IMG/VR virus record: IMGVR_UViG_3300034104_006281
Span: 1 to 28,485 of that record
Reading direction: 5' to 3' (one strand)
Origin: a virus
DNA: 28,485 bases
This document shows, piece after piece, positions 1,955 through 28,418 of the stretch. Both the position numbers and the translations under genes were made by a program. How positions within the stretch are numbered: position 1 is the first letter of the stretch; every line of letters starts with the position of its first letter. The notes under the pieces are model-generated. The model did not search any database. It was not told where the DNA came from and saw only the letters and a program-made list of their open reading frames with translations.

Positions 1955-2734
1955 TTATTTTTTAAAAGGGCACACCTCTAATAATTTAAGAGGGTCTATT
2001 TTTAACCCAGTTGGGCTAGGCTTGCTAGAAATAAATTTAGCGAGTAGAGTATGATCTATGCTTTCTCTAAAATCTAGGAATTGTATATTTTTTTCAGTAG
2101 TAACGCTGTAATGATCATGAAATTTAAAATCATCGCCACCGATATTATTTGAAAATTTGACCCATTTTACTGGTATTCCATAAGCGTGCGCTAGTATTAT
2201 CCCGTGCAATGAGCTGGAAATGACAGTTTCACAAGACAGTAACTCGTCTATGAACTGCTCTGGCGCTAAACAGATATCAATCACTTTTGAGTTATTCTTT
2301 CTCATCCAGTTTTGATTAAGTTTGTTACAAACTAAGCCGGCGTCAATGTAGTGCGGAATTATCCCAAGCTTATGAGTCTTAGCAATATTAGGCTTGTAGT
2401 AATGCGGCATTAATAGAGCCGGGTCGCCGACTACTCCACCGAATTTGTATTTTTGGCGATTTTTTAATTTCTTAGCAGTCAAAAAACCTCTTACTGCTAG
2501 GATTTTATGAGTTTTTGGAATAGTGTCGTTCTTGAACGCAATACCGGCTCCCCAAACTTCAGTTTGGCAAGTCTGGTGATTTAGTATTGAACCGGTGATC
2601 ATTACTTTATTAATTGGGTCATCTGCTTGAGTCCAACAAGGGAATTTACCGGATATCTTATTAGCTAAATATGGAGATAATGCGTCACCGACGTTGTTGG
2701 AGAGGCAGTAGTAGACATTTATGTGATCGATCAT
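1955..2734 (-). CDS. Polysaccharide pyruvyl transferase family protein
   Basis: A 259-aa protein with the layout of the polysaccharide pyruvyl transferase family (CsaB/WcaK-like): NVGDALSPYLANKI near the N-terminus (14-27), an EVWGAGIAF segment, VVGDPALLMPHYY in the middle, and the characteristic ISSSLHGIILAHAYGIPVKW near the C-terminus, where SxHG..A...G.P is the most conserved stretch. Family members transfer pyruvate from phosphoenolpyruvate to a sugar, forming a ketal, in cell-wall and exopolysaccharide synthesis. Its start codon overlaps the stop of the upstream large glycosyltransferase (ATGA, 2731-2734), so the two are translationally coupled. The family is well supported; the target glycan is unknown. 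It is an unusual gene for a phage. Confidence 0.85.
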   Translation of the reverse strand: MIDHINVYYCLSNNVGDALSPYLANKISGKFPCWTQADDPINKVMITGSILNHQTCQTEVWGAGIAFKNDTIPKTHKILAVRGFLTAKKLKNRQKYKFGGVVGDPALLMPHYYKPNIAKTHKLGIIPHYIDAGLVCNKLNQNWMRKNNSKVIDICLAPEQFIDELLSCETVISSSLHGIILAHAYGIPVKWVKFSNNIGGDDFKFHDHYSVTTEKNIQFLDFRESIDHTLLAKFISSKPSPTGLKIDPLKLLEVCPFKK

Positions 2735-4785
2735 TTTGTTTGATAACGATAGTAATAAATTACGTTTTGTATTTTTGATTCAGTTTTAAGAAGACCGCTT
2801 TCGGTCAATGATTTTGACCATTCATGATCTTCTCCATAATTTATCTCAGGAAACTTTATTGATTTGGCAATAGTTGAGCGAATCGCATTCAAGTGATTGG
2901 GGGTACGTTCATACTTGACTCTCCCAGTTGATGCAGTTCTCCACTCGGTATATGATAAACTGTGCTCAAATATCTCAGGATTGATACCATTAGTGGTCAT
3001 CTCGCCAAGTAAAGAACAGCAGTCTGGATTTGATTGAACTGCCAATAGTATTGACTTAACATAGTCATTCGAAGGCCAATCGTCGTCATCAAAAAATGCG
3101 ACATATTTGCCAGTTGCCCTCATCAATAAGTCGTTTCTCTTTAGACCTTTGGTTTTTTCTCCATTGTCAATGTCATATAGAATTTCACACTCTCCATTAA
3201 ATTCAGCTGCTTGAGCCATAAATTCAGCAAATAGAGAGTCAAACATGGTCTTACGAGAGTGAATTGAGAGAATTAGGATTGAAAGAGTTGGGTGATTTTT
3301 TATAGCCTCACCAATTTCTATTCGATCGATTTCAGCAAATCTATTAGCTTGTCGATTTGTAAATGTAACATGATCAGCACTCCATAAAGATTGACTCTCA
3401 GTTATCGAATATTGAGAGTCCATTTGAGCTAGTCCGAAGGCTGGGTGTAAATGTTTAAATAACACAACAGAGTCTCCCATGTATTTGTATTTTCCAAGAA
3501 GCTTTGCCACTTCTTGAGCTTCAACATCGCACCATAAACTAATATATGATGGGTGATAGATGTAGTTAAAACGACGGTAATACTCCTTTCCTTCAATCGT
3601 CATCGAGCACAAATTAGATCTTTGATTACCGTCATTAAAATGGATGAATTGATCTAGGTTTGAATCAAACGCATTACGAATAATATTATCAAAGCCTCTT
3701 TCAACAAACACCATATCGTCAGACATGTTTATTAGAATATCCCAAGACTTTTCATAATAGTTTAGGTCACGATTTATTGCGTCTATTTTGTTTTTACTAC
3801 TTCCTAACACAACTGAAATTTTAGGATTCTCAAGAGATTTGATATATTCTAAATATTGGTCTAAGGTTGGATCATTATCGTCTAGGCTACATAAAACAAG
3901 ATAATTTGGGCTTACGCAATTATTAATGATGCTTACAAGACCTCGATAAAATAAATCAGGTCTACTTCGTGAAGTATACTTGAATAGAATAGTTTGATTA
4001 GATTTATTATTTCCAAGTATTGATGAATCTATTGTTTTAGCGGCTATTGTGATTACTTGTGATGCAATTGAGTCTTTCACCACCTTCTTTAGTTTAGTAA
4101 GCGTGGAAATTTTCGGAAGGTGTTCTGACCTGATTGCCCACATCTGTTTATGAACGTTTGAAGAGGTTGCTGATCCTGAAAAGTCAAGCGCAATCAATTT
4201 ATCGACATTGATAGTATCAAAGTCGGATGGATCCGTAAATATGAAAGAGTCCTCATGGATCTCAAAAGAACTGAATGGTACTCCATTAGAAATAATGAAT
4301 GCAAATTTAGAAATAATAGATGGATCCGTAAAGTCTAAACCAGCTAATCCATTTAGCAAAAGGTTTGAAGTAGCATCAGAGTTAATGATCGTAAATAGCT
4401 GCGAGCTTAGGAGACCTTTATGATCTTTATAAAAGAATCCGAATTGGGAATTAGTAGGCAGCTCATTTATTATGAATAGTTGAGGATCGAATACGGTAAC
4501 TCGGCAGTTTCGATAAGAAAGAGCAGTTAGCATGAATGGGTTAATCCGATAAGACTGATCAACTCTAGAGGCTCTTTTGGTTTTTTGAGAATTATGATCT
4601 GGAAAAAATCGATTCACTTGACCGTATTTGGATAGGCTCTTGATTATGCCTGGCGGAATATCGATTTGAGAACATATTGAGATTTCATCATACTCACACG
4701 CGCTATTTTTAAGTAGTGATTCAATGTTTTCTAGGAAAATGTCCTGTACTGGATTTGAATAGTAGGTAAATAATACTGTCTTCAC
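2731..4785 (-). CDS. Large multi-domain glycosyltransferase
   Basis: A 684-aa protein with at least two GT-A modules. The C-terminal module (about 490-684) is family-2-like: it starts LSILILSIHSRKTMFDSLF, has GLKRNDLLMRATGKYVAFFD followed by a D-rich DDDW segment near residue 565, and ends with NYGEDHEWSKSL, which fits the acceptor/catalytic ED motif. A middle module (about 265-460) starts ILFKYTSRSRPDLFYRGLVS and contains DILINMSDDMVFV near 350, a second acidic metal-binding motif. The N-terminal part (1-220), starting VLFTYYSNPVQDIFLENIES, may be a third, degenerate module. This suggests a bifunctional enzyme adding two sugars. It is the first gene of the minus-strand sugar block, with a late-like box upstream at 4805-4813, and overlaps the pyruvyl transferase by 4 bases. 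Confidence 0.75.
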   Translation of the reverse strand: MKTVLFTYYSNPVQDIFLENIESLLKNSACEYDEISICSQIDIPPGIIKSLSKYGQVNRFFPDHNSQKTKRASRVDQSYRINPFMLTALSYRNCRVTVFDPQLFIINELPTNSQFGFFYKDHKGLLSSQLFTIINSDATSNLLLNGLAGLDFTDPSIISKFAFIISNGVPFSSFEIHEDSFIFTDPSDFDTINVDKLIALDFSGSATSSNVHKQMWAIRSEHLPKISTLTKLKKVVKDSIASQVITIAAKTIDSSILGNNKSNQTILFKYTSRSRPDLFYRGLVSIINNCVSPNYLVLCSLDDNDPTLDQYLEYIKSLENPKISVVLGSSKNKIDAINRDLNYYEKSWDILINMSDDMVFVERGFDNIIRNAFDSNLDQFIHFNDGNQRSNLCSMTIEGKEYYRRFNYIYHPSYISLWCDVEAQEVAKLLGKYKYMGDSVVLFKHLHPAFGLAQMDSQYSITESQSLWSADHVTFTNRQANRFAEIDRIEIGEAIKNHPTLSILILSIHSRKTMFDSLFAEFMAQAAEFNGECEILYDIDNGEKTKGLKRNDLLMRATGKYVAFFDDDDWPSNDYVKSILLAVQSNPDCCSLLGEMTTNGINPEIFEHSLSYTEWRTASTGRVKYERTPNHLNAIRSTIAKSIKFPEINYGEDHEWSKSLTESGLLKTESKIQNVIYYYRYQTK

Positions 4786-22047: not shown

Positions 22048-22611
22048 TTAGTTGAAGTATGAAACTAATAAAAATGACCCGGCTAAGATAGTTGAGTCTG
22101 GAAAGTCTCCATTTACCACTTGGTGAAAGCCTACCTTTTTAATGGATGAGCTGTCCTTTGTGAAATGATCCTTTGACAAATTTCTTGTGAATTCAAGAAC
22201 TGATTTACTGGTAATATCGATTCCATAGCAGTGCATTTTGTATGACATTGGAGCACTCATTTGAATGTCACCTAAATAGTAAATGCTATTTTCGGTAAGT
22301 CCCAATTCGTCAATATTCAAACCGGCTTCTTCAATTAGAGCACGGCATACACTATCGTAAGGAGTTTTATCAAGATCCGGATTGACTGTATCAATGATTA
22401 AGGATTCAGTTTGAGAATCAGATACTGGATTGAGGTAATCTAGTACGTAAACTGACTTGATTGAGTTCTCGGAAGACTTTTCAAATGGAATCAAGCAAAT
22501 GTACTCAAGATCATCAGCTAAATATTGATTTGAATGTTGGTCCTTAGTTAAGGTTAACACGTTAAATCTACCGAGCTTACTAGTTTCTTTTGAGATTACA
22601 GGCTTATTCAT
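22048..22611 (-). CDS. Nudix-like protein with degenerate Nudix box
   Basis: About 187 aa. CRALIEEAGLNIDELGL (near 98-114) resembles the RExxEExG part of the Nudix box, followed by IYYLGDIQMSAPMSYKMHCY, which fits the next strands of a Nudix fold. The Gly and the Glu of the upstream half (Gx5Ex7) and the E of RE are missing, so hydrolysis of nucleoside diphosphates is doubtful. I chose ATG 22611, whose ATGAATAA overlaps the upstream stop by 8 bases, over a GTG at 22638 that would add 9 residues and 35 bases of overlap. The gene lies just before uvsX. It could be an inactive or altered Nudix regulator. Confidence 0.5.
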   Translation of the reverse strand: MNKPVISKETSKLGRFNVLTLTKDQHSNQYLADDLEYICLIPFEKSSENSIKSVYVLDYLNPVSDSQTESLIIDTVNPDLDKTPYDSVCRALIEEAGLNIDELGLTENSIYYLGDIQMSAPMSYKMHCYGIDITSKSVLEFTRNLSKDHFTKDSSSIKKVGFHQVVNGDFPDSTILAGSFLLVSYFN

Positions 22612-23299
22612 TAGTAGTTGTCTTCTTTTTAGTGTCACCAGCTAATGCCTTTTTCATGGTTTTCTTGATAGCATCAACTGTTACGTTATTATTTATATAG
22701 TTTGATAGTTTTGTCAAAAACTCTTCCTTGTTCTTTGAATTCTGGTACATCATCTTTAGTAGAGTTTTGCTAGGTAACTTAACTCTAACTGCCAAATTTA
22801 AGTCAGTGTCCTCAAGTGAAAACATTCCGAATAGATCGCCTGGATCGACGCCTACCTGGATTTTTGCTGGTTCTGGTGCAAGTTGAGCAGGCTGTCCACC
22901 AATAATAGGCTGAGCCGTTACTGTTTGTGACTTGATCTCATCTACAAATTCAGTAGGAATATCGGCTGACACCTTGACCTCTTCTGACAGAGACGGAATG
23001 TAATTGATTGATTGAATTTCAGCAAACGACAATGGGTCCTGTCCATCAGTTATCATCATTAAGTTAGATGAAACCAGGTCAGTATCAATCTGAGAGCCAT
23101 CTGACAACATTGCAAGTAATCTGCCATTTCGACCAGGAACAACGTCTCTAACCTCGACTATTTTACCCATTTTATTTGGGTCATTTGTTTTTATCCACTG
23201 AAATTTATTAGCTTGAAAACTTGATTTTACAGCTATCAGCGTTTCTATATCGTATCCGTTCATAATTTTATGTAGTATTTTTTTAAACTTATTTAGCAT
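22604..23299 (-). CDS. Unknown protein following the polymerase half-gene
   Basis: A 231-aa protein starting MLNKFKKILHKIMNGYDIET. KMGKIVEVRDVVPGRNGRLL (43-62) followed by AMLSDGSQIDTDLVSSN looks like a small SH3-like barrel. A Pro/Ala/Gln-rich linker (about 128-150) leads to a basic helical C-terminus (TLLKMMYQNSKNKEEFLTKL and a Lys-rich end). No catalytic motif is visible. ATG 23299 lies 11 bases inside the polymerase gene; an alternative ATG at 23263 would shorten it by 12 residues. It contains no polymerase motif, so it is not the missing half of gp43. A DNA- or protein-binding accessory role is the best guess. Confidence 0.6.
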   Translation of the reverse strand: MLNKFKKILHKIMNGYDIETLIAVKSSFQANKFQWIKTNDPNKMGKIVEVRDVVPGRNGRLLAMLSDGSQIDTDLVSSNLMMITDGQDPLSFAEIQSINYIPSLSEEVKVSADIPTEFVDEIKSQTVTAQPIIGGQPAQLAPEPAKIQVGVDPGDLFGMFSLEDTDLNLAVRVKLPSKTLLKMMYQNSKNKEEFLTKLSNYINNNVTVDAIKKTMKKALAGDTKKKTTTNE

Positions 23300-24662
23300 C
23301 TAGTTGCTCTTCTAATTTTTTCATTTCATTCTTAGTGTCCACACGACCGTTATATAAACGAGTTAATATAGTGCGGGCTGCTGAATCAAACTTTTTAGTA
23401 AATAGAGTATTGTTTTTCGTTAGTACTTGACCTTCAGTTGGTTCTTGATCAGGTTTATTTTTTCCTAAATACGCGTCTGGCGAAATGTTAAACTGAATTT
23501 GAATGTTTGGATACATTGATGCAAAGTCAAAACATGATACGTACTTATAATATCCAGGTTCAGGTTTTGCAACGTATGCACCATCGTAAGTTGCATCTTC
23601 TTCAAGATCTCTTCGATCGTTTGCCATGTATAAACCACGCTCTAAGAATTCTCTACACATTAGAGTTTCAGTAATGAATACGGCTGAGAATACTTTAGAA
23701 ACATCGACTCTTGCAAATTTAGAGATCGCAAAGGCTACATCAAGTAGACCAAGCTTGTCTTCTATTAACTTAATAAGAATTGTATCAATGATGTTGTACT
23801 TAATGAAGTTCTCAACGTCTTGCTGAGCTTCTAGCATTGTTGCATATTCACTGTGTAATTTAGTGGTTCCAAGCACAAGGTTTGCAATGTAGTCTAACTT
23901 GTAATTTTCAACAACCTTATACGGCTTGGTGTTCATGAAAACTTCCATGTAATCCAGAAGTCCCATGTGAACTGGCATTTTGGCTTTACCGATCAAAGTT
24001 TTAGATGACATTTTGGCCATTGGCTCAATTCCTAAATTCTTACAACGATTGATTAAGTACAACCAGTCAAATCCGATTACGTTCCAACCGGTTAAGAATG
24101 GAATTTTAGGAAGCACTTTGTGAAAAAAGGTTGTCATCATCTCTTCCTCTGTCTCAAAAAACAGATACTTGAGAGTAAAGTCTTGGCCGTGAGCCTTAAA
24201 GTAATCATTAACTTCATCTTGCATTTGAGAAATTACCGGATTCTCTAAGTTCTTCATGGTTGACATTACAAAACAAATATTATCCTCATTCACAAACGTT
24301 ATTAAATTAACTGGCATCGCTGCTTTATTTGGATCTGGAAAGTCGGTTGATAATAACTGGATCTCAATATCCAGATAGTACTTTTTTGGGCTATCGTCTG
24401 AATAAATTGAATCTAATTCGGTTTGATCTAACCTAGTTTGGGTCAATTCTTCAAGTCTAAACCGGCTCAACCATTTACCTTGAACCTTTTTTAGAAACTT
24501 TCCATCCCAGTTACGATTCTCAGTAGGAGTTGGAGTTAGGTTCCAGTTATACAGGTCGTGTGGCAAAATCGGTTTCTTCATGAATCCAATTGTTCCATCA
24601 GGTTTATAATACGAAATGACTAGCGTTGAGTCTTCCGTGTGAAATTCAGTACTTACAATCAT
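23289..24662 (-). CDS. DNA polymerase (family B, gp43-like), N-terminal part of a split enzyme
   Basis: A 457-aa protein corresponding to the first half of T4 gp43 (898 aa). The 3'-5' exonuclease motifs are intact: ExoI YYLDIE (95-100), ExoII TGWNVIGFDWLYL (191-203) and ExoIII KYNIIDTI (288-295). Polymerase motif A, CFDFASMYPNIQIQFNISPD (377-396), is present. The protein then ends cleanly after ARTILTRLYNGRVDTKNEMK and KLEEQLDAK, within what would be the fingers region. Motif B (KxxxNSxYG) and motif C (DTD) are absent, and downstream genes in all frames lack them, so a second gene must supply the C-terminal half. Some Aeromonas T4-like phages also have split gp43. No disrupted reading frame is seen. 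Confidence 0.9.
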   Translation of the reverse strand: MIVSTEFHTEDSTLVISYYKPDGTIGFMKKPILPHDLYNWNLTPTPTENRNWDGKFLKKVQGKWLSRFRLEELTQTRLDQTELDSIYSDDSPKKYYLDIEIQLLSTDFPDPNKAAMPVNLITFVNEDNICFVMSTMKNLENPVISQMQDEVNDYFKAHGQDFTLKYLFFETEEEMMTTFFHKVLPKIPFLTGWNVIGFDWLYLINRCKNLGIEPMAKMSSKTLIGKAKMPVHMGLLDYMEVFMNTKPYKVVENYKLDYIANLVLGTTKLHSEYATMLEAQQDVENFIKYNIIDTILIKLIEDKLGLLDVAFAISKFARVDVSKVFSAVFITETLMCREFLERGLYMANDRRDLEEDATYDGAYVAKPEPGYYKYVSCFDFASMYPNIQIQFNISPDAYLGKNKPDQEPTEGQVLTKNNTLFTKKFDSAARTILTRLYNGRVDTKNEMKKLEEQLDAK

Positions 24663-24680: not shown

Positions 24681-25160
24681 TTAATAACCATTCTGTTGAC
24701 GTGCTCGGTTCTCTTCGTTTTTAGACATGTACATGTTGTACATCTCCTGAGGAGTCATTCCGATCGAAATTGCGTAATTCATAAAGAAGTGTAGCATGTC
24801 AATCACCTCGAATTTGCACTCAAGTTGATCTTCTTGTGATAAATCTGAGAATTTCTTATCCGAGTAGCCCTCGTGTGCCTTTTTCCATCTTTTCCAGATG
24901 GCATTACCGTCTCCGTCCTTGATTCCGCCTAGTGCATCGGTTGCTTCGTGAATCTCATCAATCATTGCATGATTGTTCATGTGCCAAAATGTCATTAGGT
25001 CACGTAAAGTCATGTTTTTAAAGTCATAGCCGTAAACATTTTTTTGAGTATCGGCTTGTAAGTTCATGATGTCACCTAACGTGTCCGAGTTAGGTTGGGT
25101 ACGATCTGACCAAAGGTCATTAATTTCTAATTTTGCGCAGGAATTGTCTGTATTTGCCAT
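24681..25160 (-). CDS. dCTPase/dUTPase, T4 gp56-like (all-alpha NTP pyrophosphatase)
   Basis: A 159-aa protein. MIDEIHEATDALGG (66-79) gives the first acidic metal cluster, AIWKRWKKAHEGYSDKKFSD (87-106) the linker, DQLECKFEVIDMLHFFMNYA (111-130) the second acidic cluster ExxxD, and SKNEENRARQQNGY (146-159) the basic C-terminal nucleotide loop. These align by memory with T4 gp56 (AVWKKWKARY, DQLEIKFELVDIFHF, LKNKKNFERQDNGY). Gp56 hydrolyses dCTP and dUTP so that unmodified cytosine does not enter phage DNA. Together with the gp42-like and dCMP deaminase genes it forms the core T4 hydroxymethylcytosine pathway. A dUTPase-only activity is the alternative. Confidence 0.85.
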   Translation of the reverse strand: MANTDNSCAKLEINDLWSDRTQPNSDTLGDIMNLQADTQKNVYGYDFKNMTLRDLMTFWHMNNHAMIDEIHEATDALGGIKDGDGNAIWKRWKKAHEGYSDKKFSDLSQEDQLECKFEVIDMLHFFMNYAISIGMTPQEMYNMYMSKNEENRARQQNGY

Positions 25161-25325: not shown

Positions 25326-28300
25326 ATGGCAGAAAAATTAAATCTGAACCGATTCAAGTCAAGCGGTGTCTACACGGTCGAAATCGACGAGAGCACTAGT
25401 CTCAGCTTACCTTTATCGACAGGAAGACTCGTAATAGGAACCAGCAAAAAGGGACCTATAAACTCAGTAGTACTAATTAATGACTTACGTGCATTAACCG
25501 CAGTATACGGAGAAAATGATTCTAAACTAGAAAAGAATGGAAGTTTCTTTCATAGAACGATAGAAATAGCATTGAGACAAGGCCCAGTTTACGCTTTGAA
25601 CCTTCTACCGGTTGCAGATACAGACGTTGCATACTTTACAACATTCAATACTGAATCAGCATCAAACAATTCAACTTGGGCGGCTAATCTCTATCAAGAT
25701 AGCCTTTCACGATTCTACAATACTCAGAAACTATGGTTTGCTGATGTTGATGCAGTCAACAAGTACAAAAACATTCAGTTAGGAGACTCCTTCCCAGCAA
25801 CTGGAACAGCAGACAGAGATGCTAACAAACTTTTAAGTTTAGTTAATCTTTCTAAGAAAGCGGTTACTGCATGGGTTAGAGTAGCTGATACTACTGGATA
25901 CGATATTAAAGTTAAGGAATACTACAATCTCCTAGGAGATAAGGTAGAAATTCCGGAATTCTTACACCCAGACGATTACGTGTCAGACTATTTCGTTGAG
26001 ATTGTAGTGGTTGAAGGAGATTGGACAGATTACGTTAGACTTTCAAAGGATCCTATCTATGGACAGTTCTTTAATCCATCAGGTATTGAACTTGCAAAGA
26101 TGAATGATTTTCTTTCATTGAGAGAAATATCAGTAGTAAATCGTACAATCGGAGCAATGATTCCCGAATTTAGAGATTTAACTGGAGCGACTGCTTCAAT
26201 TGACTCTCTATTCAATAGAAAATTCAGCCAGTCTGGAGTATTTTGTGCAATTGACTACAAGAAAGTTGACATGATCGACTTAACTAATGCTACCTTCGAT
26301 AGCGGTAGTTCAACTGAACCTAGTGCAGAACAAAGAATTGATCTAGTAGGTTATGGATTTGATGAACTTAACACAACTGATGTTACTAAGCAACTTTACA
26401 CAGTGGATAACGGAATCAGCACAGTTGATCCAGTTGCACTAATTGATGTATTGAGCTATAGAAAATCAGCTGGATACGAATATTATTTTGCATTAGACAG
26501 CGTTGATTATAATTCAACGTATGCTGCTGGCGAAACGTACACGATTCAAAAACTTTCAGGTCCTTCTAATTTACCAACAGGAGACAAGTACATTGTTGCA
26601 ACTATTGGAAGTAAACTTTACACTGCATGGGCAAACGGCTTCATTAAAACTGGAGATACTTTGCACTACTTAGCAGGTCCTTCTGATACACCAACTACTC
26701 TTTACTTATCAACTGATGGCTTAGTTAAAACACAAAGCACTGGTCAAATTAAGTACATTGAATTCTATGCTTACCAAGATGCAGCATTTCAAAACCAAGT
26801 TGACGTTGAGTATATAACTGACGGTGTTGTTAGTCCATCACCAGCTTACTTAAATATCAAATCAACTAACGTTACTCAATTTAAAGCAGATTTCGATTTG
26901 ACTGATTCTAACTACTTCATTACTACTGGAGCTAATAACTATAAGTTCTTTTCTCCAAATCAAGTGGTATTTACTCTGAATCCTTCACTTTACGGAAACG
27001 TTGCTAAGAAAGAATCAGTAAGTGCCGGATACACATACGATTCAACTAAGAGAAATCTCGTAGATTCATTCTTTAAGGTTGGCCAATTGATTAAAGCCGG
27101 CCTTGTGAAAGATGCAAACGGTGACCAAGTTATTCGTAATCGTGCATTAAAAATTAGATCAGTTTACAGTCAATTGGTTACAGTAAACCACGGTCCTTCT
27201 AGCTTACCTGCTAAAACTCTAAAATACACAATAACTGTTGATACCGCAGCTGATTCAAATATTACAGGAATCGATATCGCGCCAGCAGTATTAGGCGGAA
27301 ATGCAGGTCTTAGCGTTTATAAAGGAATTAAAAACTACGTAACTGATCTTAGAGGATTCTATGTACCAGCAATGCAAGTTGATGAAAGCGGATTGTATCC
27401 TAATGGAACAGCTGACCGTCAAAATACTATCTTGGACTACATGTTCAATGATACTAATATTGCTTCTACATTAGCTGATAACGAAACTCTAGAGTATCGT
27501 TACATTATTGATTCTTATGAAGGTCAAATTTGGAGCGCTTCTAAACAGCAACTTGCTCAACTTGCAGCAAATCACGGAAAAGCACTAGCTATCCTAAATG
27601 CTCCATCTTTTGCACAATACGAAAGATCAATTGATCCAAGCTTTATTGATGCTAATACTAATTTAGTATCGGCTGAATTCATTTCAACTGGTGGTAACTT
27701 ATCGACTAATCCATCTTATACATTTGGATTTGCAACTGGAGAGAAAAATGGTATTTCAATCGCATCTTACACTGCGTATTTCATGCCTAACTTAGTAATC
27801 TTTGAAGGTGGTAGAAATAAATCAATTCCACCAGCAGCATACGTTGCGAATACTTACATGAAAAAGTACTCTAGTGGAAATACTTTCTCAATCGTAGCAG
27901 GAAAAAGAGGTATAATCACTGAGCCTGAAATTACGGGAGTTGAATACGACTTAACTAATGGCGATAGAGACTTCTTGGAACCAGCAGGTTTCAACTTGAT
28001 CGTTAGACGTAGAGGTTTCGGTGTTATGATTTTCTCAAACAACACTGGATTCCAAAGAGTTAGATCAGCGTTGAATAACATTCACGTAAGAGAAGCTCTA
28101 GTAACTATCGAAAGAGATATTGAAAGAATCTTATTGAACTTCCTATTTGACTTCAATGATACTACTACTAGATTAAGAGTTAAAACTCTGGTTAAGAACT
28201 ACTTAACGGCAGTTCAAGACGCTAGAGGTATCTCAACATTCGACGTAATATTCGATGATTCAAATAACGGAACTGAAGTTCTTGAAAATAATGCAGGTAT

Positions 28301-28418
28301 CATCGATGTTATTGTTGACTTCCCAAGAGGTATTCACAAGTTCATCAACCGTATTACAATCACAAGAGCCGGCGGTCAACTTGCTTCAAACTCTACTGGA
28401 TTTACTCCATCATTCTAA
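25326..28418 (+). CDS. Tail sheath protein, T4 gp18-like, enlarged
   Basis: A 1030-aa protein (T4 gp18 is 659 aa). The N-terminus FKSSGVYTVEIDESTSLSLP followed by GRLVIGTSKKGPINSVVLIN is typical of T4-like sheaths. The C-terminal domain is clearly conserved: ERDIERILLNFLFDFNDTTT, GISTFDVIFDDSNN, and IDVIVDFPRGIHKFINRITI. The central part (about 90-750) is much longer than in T4 and includes beta-rich stretches such as GETYTIQKLSGPSNLPTGDK and QIKYIEFYAYQDAAFQNQVD, probably extra protrusion domains on the sheath surface. Sheath subunits contract around the tube at infection. It lies divergent from the dCTPase gene and is followed by a terminator. Confidence 0.93.
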   Translation: MAEKLNLNRFKSSGVYTVEIDESTSLSLPLSTGRLVIGTSKKGPINSVVLINDLRALTAVYGENDSKLEKNGSFFHRTIEIALRQGPVYALNLLPVADTDVAYFTTFNTESASNNSTWAANLYQDSLSRFYNTQKLWFADVDAVNKYKNIQLGDSFPATGTADRDANKLLSLVNLSKKAVTAWVRVADTTGYDIKVKEYYNLLGDKVEIPEFLHPDDYVSDYFVEIVVVEGDWTDYVRLSKDPIYGQFFNPSGIELAKMNDFLSLREISVVNRTIGAMIPEFRDLTGATASIDSLFNRKFSQSGVFCAIDYKKVDMIDLTNATFDSGSSTEPSAEQRIDLVGYGFDELNTTDVTKQLYTVDNGISTVDPVALIDVLSYRKSAGYEYYFALDSVDYNSTYAAGETYTIQKLSGPSNLPTGDKYIVATIGSKLYTAWANGFIKTGDTLHYLAGPSDTPTTLYLSTDGLVKTQSTGQIKYIEFYAYQDAAFQNQVDVEYITDGVVSPSPAYLNIKSTNVTQFKADFDLTDSNYFITTGANNYKFFSPNQVVFTLNPSLYGNVAKKESVSAGYTYDSTKRNLVDSFFKVGQLIKAGLVKDANGDQVIRNRALKIRSVYSQLVTVNHGPSSLPAKTLKYTITVDTAADSNITGIDIAPAVLGGNAGLSVYKGIKNYVTDLRGFYVPAMQVDESGLYPNGTADRQNTILDYMFNDTNIASTLADNETLEYRYIIDSYEGQIWSASKQQLAQLAANHGKALAILNAPSFAQYERSIDPSFIDANTNLVSAEFISTGGNLSTNPSYTFGFATGEKNGISIASYTAYFMPNLVIFEGGRNKSIPPAAYVANTYMKKYSSGNTFSIVAGKRGIITEPEITGVEYDLTNGDRDFLEPAGFNLIVRRRGFGVMIFSNNTGFQRVRSALNNIHVREALVTIERDIERILLNFLFDFNDTTTRLRVKTLVKNYLTAVQDARGISTFDVIFDDSNNGTEVLENNAGIIDVIVDFPRGIHKFINRITITRAGGQLASNSTGFTPSF

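What the first reader, a model, noticed from the sequence alone, without database searches (positions are those of the whole stretch)
23289..24662. Split DNA polymerase: the gene ends right after motif A
The protein has all three exonuclease motifs and polymerase motif A, then stops after 457 residues inside the fingers region. Motifs B and C are not encoded in the next genes in any frame. The reading frame is clean up to a stop that overlaps the next start, so it looks like a stable split rather than decay. Split gp43 genes are known from Aeromonas T4-like phages.
Basis: partly seen in the sequence, partly recalled or inferred. Interest (0 to 1): 0.7.

Follow-up and report, generated by a model that had tools for sequence, protein, structure and literature searches.

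The report
Phage DNA polymerase in two genes
In this large uncultured phage the DNA-copying enzyme is encoded as two separate proteins whose genes, in every close relative long enough to check, lie tens of kilobases apart; split phage polymerases were already known, but here the split holds for a whole deep group of huge phages and seems to be their only polymerase.

Summary
The ORF at 24662..23289 (minus strand) is the N-terminal half of a T4 gp43-type family B DNA polymerase: all exonuclease motifs and polymerase motif A, ending at the fingers hairpin. The window is a 28 kb contig fragment with no motif B or C in any frame. The missing half was found. All 12 close relatives whose contigs reach that far carry a separate 500-550 aa C-terminal half (motif B, DTDS) on the same strand 38-48 kb downstream; the 99%-identical relative has it 48 kb away. 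A circularly complete 271 kb relative has one N-half, one C-half, no full-length PolB and no PolA or PolIII-alpha. None of the 120-odd related loci encodes a fused enzyme. N-halves form one clade (100/100) that includes Lak and other huge phages; the adjacent splits of 44RR, Acj61, S-CREM2, ACG-2014f and Vibrio phages are separate. The N-half is under strong purifying selection (dN/dS 0.01-0.07), its distances match those of the C-half (r=0.97), and no intein marks the break, so the halves most likely assemble non-covalently. This is a new variant of a known kind; assembly is inferred, not shown, and this phage's own C-half lies outside the contig.

The parts
23289..24662 (-). N-terminal half (subunit A) of a split T4 gp43-type family B DNA polymerase, 457 aa
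   Evidence: PF03104, PF00136, phrog_2062 and phrog_262, RB69 gp43 by sequence and by predicted fold, pLDDT 85
24363..24371 (-). Exo I motif, DIE (residues 98-100)
   Evidence: invariant in alignments of relatives
24063..24089 (-). Exo II motif, GWNVIGFDW (residues 192-200)
   Evidence: G192, W193, D199 and W200 invariant
23781..23798 (-). Exo III motif, YNIIDT (residues 289-294)
   Evidence: Y289 and D293 invariant
23505..23528 (-). Polymerase motif A, DFASMYPN (residues 379-386)
   Evidence: D379, Y384 and P385 invariant
23295..23381 (-). First fingers helix (residues 428-456); the protein ends at its tip
   Evidence: predicted helix 428-456; the C-half of relatives resumes 23-25 residues before motif B
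22604..23299 (-). Conserved 231-aa companion gene overlapping the polymerase stop; internal xFxMF motif; function unknown
   Evidence: conserved after the N-half across the window subclade, absent there in the sister clade; no Pfam or PHROG match
24681..25160 (-). MazG/dUTPase-like pyrophosphohydrolase immediately upstream, a synteny anchor
   Evidence: phrog_173; 74-76% identical neighbour of the N-half in L236 and L240
20806..21996 (-). UvsX-like recombinase downstream (replication neighbourhood)
   Evidence: phrog_97, PF00154
18942..20465 (-). DnaB-type replicative helicase (gp41-like)
   Evidence: phrog_19, PF03796

Best explanation
The gene encodes subunit A (N-terminal domain, 3'-5' exonuclease, half of the palm with motif A, first fingers helix) of a two-subunit family B replicative DNA polymerase. 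Subunit B (second fingers helix with motif B, rest of the palm with motif C, thumb, plus a clade-specific C-terminal tail) is encoded by a separate gene 38-48 kb away on the same strand. The two translation products most likely associate non-covalently across the fingers hairpin and the palm to rebuild one active site, forming the phage's only replicative polymerase. Shown here: the anatomy, the break point, the C-half and its position in relatives, conservation, absence of an intein, absence of another polymerase in a complete relative. Inferred: non-covalent assembly and activity, and the presence of the C-half in this particular phage (its contig ends before that position).
For: N-half motifs and family matches. 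C-half genes with KQNAIKILINSFYG and YTDTDSVY in all 12 window-clade records reaching that region, e.g. G002 (99% identical N-half at 50788, C-half at 99888). The two halves abut with almost nothing missing: motif A to break 79 aa plus C-half start to motif B 23 aa, about 102 aa against 113 in unsplit cyanophage gp43. A circularly complete 271 kb relative carries one N-half, one C-half and no full-length PolB; no PF00476 or PF07733 in eight records. dN/dS 0.012-0.074 (N) and 0.06-0.10 (C). N and C distance matrices r=0.97, 0 of 2000 permutations as high. No intein domain in either half, although the same search detects one in the Lak C-half. Precedent: split 43A/43B proteins of Aeromonas phage co-purify and have DNA polymerase activity (PMC2988022).
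Against: No biochemistry, and a complex could not be modelled (single chains only). The C-half alone gave a poor model (pLDDT 61), so the interface is unmodelled. The C-half of this exact phage is outside the 28 kb contig. The motif A region (350-383) is low-confidence when the N-half is folded alone, which fits an incomplete palm but is not proof of complementation. The N/C distance correlation is what common descent alone would give.
Confidence: 0.9

Rival explanations
1. The N-half is a redundant or free-standing exonuclease, and an unsplit polymerase elsewhere does replication.
For: The exonuclease domain is complete. A second, distinct PolB-type exonuclease (PF10108, 248 aa) lies about 20 kb upstream in relatives, so free-standing exonucleases do occur in these phages.
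Against: Motif A and the first fingers helix are conserved, useless for a pure exonuclease. No full-length PolB in any record searched, including a circularly complete one; no PolA or PolIII alpha. A matching C-half is always present where the contig reaches.
Confidence: 0.03
2. The halves are joined covalently: protein trans-splicing by a split intein, or RNA trans-splicing by a split intron.
For: Split inteins at motif C join two pieces of the C-half in Lak, LR756500, G023 and G035; a split PolB with a split intein is published for phage MIJ3 (PMC6892783).
Against: The N-half ends directly after fingers sequence and the C-half begins 23-25 residues before motif B, leaving no room for intein halves; no Intein_splicing match in either half, while the same search finds it in Lak. 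No Rfam intron in the window. Each half has its own start and stop.
Confidence: 0.04
3. The split is a pseudogene, a sequencing error or an assembly artefact.
For: None beyond the truncated domain.
Against: The same end point occurs in dozens of independent metagenome contigs down to 33% identity; dN/dS 0.012-0.074.
Confidence: 0.01
4. On origin rather than function: the split was made by a homing endonuclease insertion as argued for other T4-type split genes, with the endonuclease later lost.
For: Endonuclease-associated splits are known in T4-type phages (PMC2988022); several unrelated splits fall at the same fingers site.
Against: No endonuclease seen beside either half in the window clade; relatives with the halves closest carry nrdB, nrdA and a 250-aa gene between them. 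The origin is too old to read from these data.
Confidence: 0.3

Closest known systems
Split gp43A/gp43B of Aeromonas phages 44RR and 25 (Petrov, Ratnayaka and Karam 2010, reviewed in PMC2988022)
   Same: PolB of the gp43 type divided into an exonuclease plus motif A polypeptide (498 aa) and a motif B plus C polypeptide (391 aa), break in the fingers; co-purification and activity reported for the two proteins
   Different: There the halves are neighbours 49 nt apart with a spacer or endonuclease; here they are 38-48 kb apart, no endonuclease, fixed in a whole clade, a separate fission, with a C-terminal tail instead of the terminal clamp peptide
Acinetobacter phage Acj61 43A/43B and vB_AbaM_DLP1
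   Same: Same break position; the halves are not adjacent (10 genes, about 4 kb, in Acj61)
   Different: Separate fission within Straboviridae: Acj61 pairs with unsplit T4 in the tree
Synechococcus phages S-CREM2 and ACG-2014f; Vibrio phages henriette 12B8 and 2.058.O
   Same: Same break position, two annotated polymerase ORFs
   Different: One or two small genes between the halves; other branches of the tree; motif B-to-C spacing 57 (where measured) rather than 72-76
PolB of Lak megaphages and huge phages LR756500-LR756504, LR745206
   Same: Same clade, same N-half/C-half break, halves far apart
   Different: 100-280 kb apart or on opposite strands in some; in Lak and LR756500 the C-half is again divided by a split intein at motif C
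MIJ3 split PolB with intein (PMC6892783)
   Same: Jumbo-phage PolB encoded in pieces
   Different: Its pieces are joined by a split intein with an HNH gene between; the window gene has no intein at its break

Membership tests
Family B DNA polymerase, T4 gp43 type (PF03104 + PF00136, phrog_262) | 3'-5' exonuclease domain with Exo I, II and III carboxylates | tested here: met
   D98/E100, D199, D293 invariant; PF03104 46.6 bits against cut-off 23
Family B DNA polymerase, T4 gp43 type (PF03104 + PF00136, phrog_262) | Motif A (D-x2-S[LM]YP) | tested here: met
   DFASMYPN at 379-386
Family B DNA polymerase, T4 gp43 type (PF03104 + PF00136, phrog_262) | Motifs B and C in the same polypeptide | tested here: not met
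   Absent from the ORF and the window; encoded by a distant gene in relatives
Family B DNA polymerase, T4 gp43 type (PF03104 + PF00136, phrog_262) | Templated DNA synthesis | not testable with these tools
   needs purified proteins
Split gp43 (43A/43B kind) | Two ORFs that together cover the whole PolB, broken in the fingers | tested here: met
   N-half ends 79 aa after motif A; C-half starts 23 aa before motif B in relative G002
Split gp43 (43A/43B kind) | Halves adjacent, separated by a spacer, endonuclease or small genes | tested here: not met
   38-48 kb apart in the window clade; 4-67 kb in relatives
Split gp43 (43A/43B kind) | The two proteins form one active complex | not testable with these tools
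   shown in the literature only for the Aeromonas phage proteins
Fractured gene joined by a split intein | Intein N and C segments flanking the break | tested here: not met
   No Intein_splicing match in either half, against 38.1 bits in the Lak C-half; no room for one
PHROG 2062 (N-half) / 1918 (C-half) | Match over most of the half-length profile | tested here: met
   N-half 51-488 of 502, E 1.7e-72; relative's C-half 25-369 of 382, E 3.3e-61

The most novel reading that the evidence does not exclude
A deep clade of huge phages replicates with an obligately two-subunit PolB whose genes belong to different transcription units (exonuclease half near uvsX, helicase and recombination genes; polymerase half next to primase), so enzyme assembly could be timed or balanced by separate expression. 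In the window's subclade the terminal clamp-binding peptide is replaced by a tail, and its role may have passed to the 231-aa companion protein with an xFxMF motif encoded right after the N-half, making a three-part enzyme.
Probability: 0.15. Interest if true: 0.7.

Novelty: new variant of a known kind. Interest (0 to 1): 0.5.

Why it matters
A single-chain enzyme regarded as one functional unit has been cut at the same fingers position several separate times in phages, and in one large clade the cut is fixed with the halves far apart. That makes it a natural set of split polymerases for asking how a PolB tolerates an open fingers hairpin, whether separate expression regulates replication or proofreading, and how essential genes drift apart after fission. 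It also warns that huge phages may be scored as lacking a full-length DNA polymerase when both halves are present.

Tried and rejected
Full-length PolB, PolA or PolIII alpha elsewhere: none found. Frameshift or sequencing error: rejected by relatives. Split intein at the break: rejected. Rfam elements and tRNAs in the window: none. Promoter and terminator scan near the gene: no promoter excess over shuffles (10 against 11.2); 3 terminator-like sites against 1.7 expected. Foldseek with the C-half model: low confidence (pLDDT 61); gp43 and E. coli Pol II were the only credible hits, so the C-terminal tail stays unidentified. The 250-aa gene before the C-half in L236/L240 looks like a gp45 clamp by eye, but gave no PHROG or PDB match, so it is not claimed. 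First whole-window phage search failed on length and was not repeated. First C-profile was built with wrongly cut reference rows and was rebuilt; only the second is used. Literature: no held paper found on a long-distance split PolB across a huge-phage clade; the Petrov 2010 original was read only through a review.

Full report
OBSERVATION. The ORF at 24662..23289 (minus strand, 457 aa) has Exo I, II and III and polymerase motif A and then stops. Pfam gives PF03104 and PF00136, the latter only to profile position 143 of 453. No motif B exists in any frame of the window, and the few DTD strings are outside polymerase context. The stop overlaps the next start by 11 nt. The window, however, is a 28,485-base virus fragment, so the missing half had to be sought in relatives.

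THE MISSING HALF. A scan of IMG/VR with the N-half gave 46 loci of 65-100% identity, nearly all matching the query to residue 453-457. Among 20 of their contigs, all 12 that reach far enough contain a second gene matching the rest of gp43 (phrog_262 positions about 495-839), on the same strand, 38-48 kb downstream; the C-half profile phrog_1918 finds a thirteenth (G021). The closest relative, G002 (99% identical N-half), has it at 99888 against 50788. These proteins, 500-550 aa, begin MSKQLEQQIKSLDLKQNAIKILINSFYGAFGN (or close to it) and contain YTDTDSVY. The contigs without a C-half hit are shorter or end before that region.

NO OTHER POLYMERASE. Four records of 270-271 kb are permutations of one genome. 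G009 has a 126-base terminal overlap, and both its ends are contiguous inside G007 at 100% identity, so this relative is circularly complete. It has one N-half, one C-half and no full-length PolB. PolA and PolIII alpha are absent from eight records of this group, while the control genomes ring.

CLADE-WIDE FIXATION. A wider scan and an ORF census with N and C profiles built here showed that all N-half ORFs in the clade are stand-alone, about 460-515 aa when complete. The only ORFs matching both profiles belong to T4-like and cyanophage reference genomes. In further relatives the C-half is again downstream on the same strand, 4-67 kb away. In L236 and L240 it is only 4-5 kb away, with nrdB-like, nrdA-like and a 250-aa gene between (named here from their sequence by eye; L236 also has a 64-aa ORF), and the same MazG-like gene precedes the N-half as in the window. 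In LR756504, LR745206 and LR756502 the halves are 100-280 kb apart on opposite strands.

ONE OLD SPLIT, OTHERS SEPARATE. A maximum-likelihood tree of the N part (44 rows) puts the 31 far-split sequences, including Lak, on one side of a branch with 100/100 support, while the five adjacent or nearby splits (44RR, Acj61, S-CREM2, ACG-2014f, henriette 12B8) need five changes among unsplit relatives. The far-split C-halves share a 15-17 residue insertion: motif B-to-C spacing 72-76 (160 in LR756501) against 55-58 in all others measured. So fission at the fingers has happened several times; fusions back are not excluded. G029 and Lak are long branches whose exact place is unsure.

BREAK POINT. Motif A to the end of the N-half is 79 aa and C-half start to motif B is 23 aa in G002, about 102 in all, against 113-114 in unsplit cyanophage gp43 and about 150 in T4. 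Little sequence is missing. By alignment to RB69 gp43 the N-half ends near RB69 residue 499, and its last residues 428-456 are a predicted helix, so the cut falls at the tip of the fingers hairpin (domain boundaries of RB69 from general knowledge).

SELECTION. dN/dS is 0.012-0.074 for the N-half and 0.06-0.10 for the C-half, by a simple Nei-Gojobori count with synonymous sites near saturation in the distant pairs. N and C distance matrices correlate at r=0.97 over 25 taxa, expected from shared descent and showing no mixing of halves between lineages.

MECHANISM. No intein domain is present in either half and there is no room for one. The most likely mechanism is non-covalent assembly, as reported for Aeromonas phage 43A/43B, which co-purify and have polymerase activity (PMC2988022). 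The N-half folds confidently on its own as RB69 gp43 (pLDDT 85) except residues 350-383 around motif A, as expected for a palm that lacks its other half. The C-half model is poor (pLDDT 61). Assembly and activity are inference.

CONTEXT. The N-half lies with uvsX, a DnaB-type helicase, gp47/gp46-like genes, thymidylate synthase and dCMP deaminase; the C-half in G001/G002 overlaps the start of a primase gene (phrog_47), followed by head-closure and portal genes, with a UvsW-like helicase a few kilobases upstream in G002. No homing endonuclease is seen next to either half.

NOVELTY. Split gp43 is a known kind, and PHROGs already holds a separate family for each half. What I did not find in the held literature is a split that is fixed in a deep huge-phage clade with the halves tens to hundreds of kilobases apart. 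I rate this a new variant of a known kind, interest 0.5.

Noticed in passing
window 22604-23299 (-): 231-aa protein overlapping the polymerase stop is conserved after the N-half throughout the window subclade and carries an internal xFxMF-x(2-3)-E motif (DLFGMFSLED, NMFSMFNADE, GIFEMFATEE) resembling T4-type clamp-binding peptides; absent at that place in the sister clade, whose C-halves instead mostly end in -LF.
   Followed up: partly
L098:1501-3129; L243:6001-7623 (C-halves): C-halves of the window subclade carry a 100-180 aa C-terminal tail after the thumb in place of the terminal clamp-binding peptide; the first part is conserved and the end is variable. No fold assigned.
   Followed up: partly
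L156, L158, L344, L345 (Lak-A2, LR756500, G023, G035): In these relatives the C-half is itself divided at motif C (DTDS) into two ORFs carrying complementary split-intein segments (PF14890 in Lak-A2), so PolB is made from three ORFs.
   Followed up: partly
L108:4942-5685 (G002) and equivalents: A second PolB-type exonuclease gene (PF10108, about 250 aa) lies about 20 kb upstream of the N-half across the clade.
   Followed up: partly
L236:10301-11059 and L240:9697-10449: A 250-aa gene overlapping the C-half start looks like a sliding clamp by eye, but has no PHROG or PDB sequence match.
   Followed up: partly
C-halves of the far-split clade: A 15-17 residue insertion between motifs B and C (W-x-x-D-x-E-x-H region) distinguishes this clade from T4-like, cyanophage and other PolBs compared.
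   Followed up: yes
L355 (CAIWBA010000291.1, 254 kb): An 86%-identical N-half sits on a 254 kb contig binned in an uncultured Bacteroidetes MAG, a weak hint at a Bacteroidota host.
   Followed up: no
window 25326-28418 (+): Unusually long tail sheath gene (1030 aa).
   Followed up: no
window 2731-4785 (-): 684-aa glycosyltransferase-like protein with matches in two stretches.
   Followed up: no
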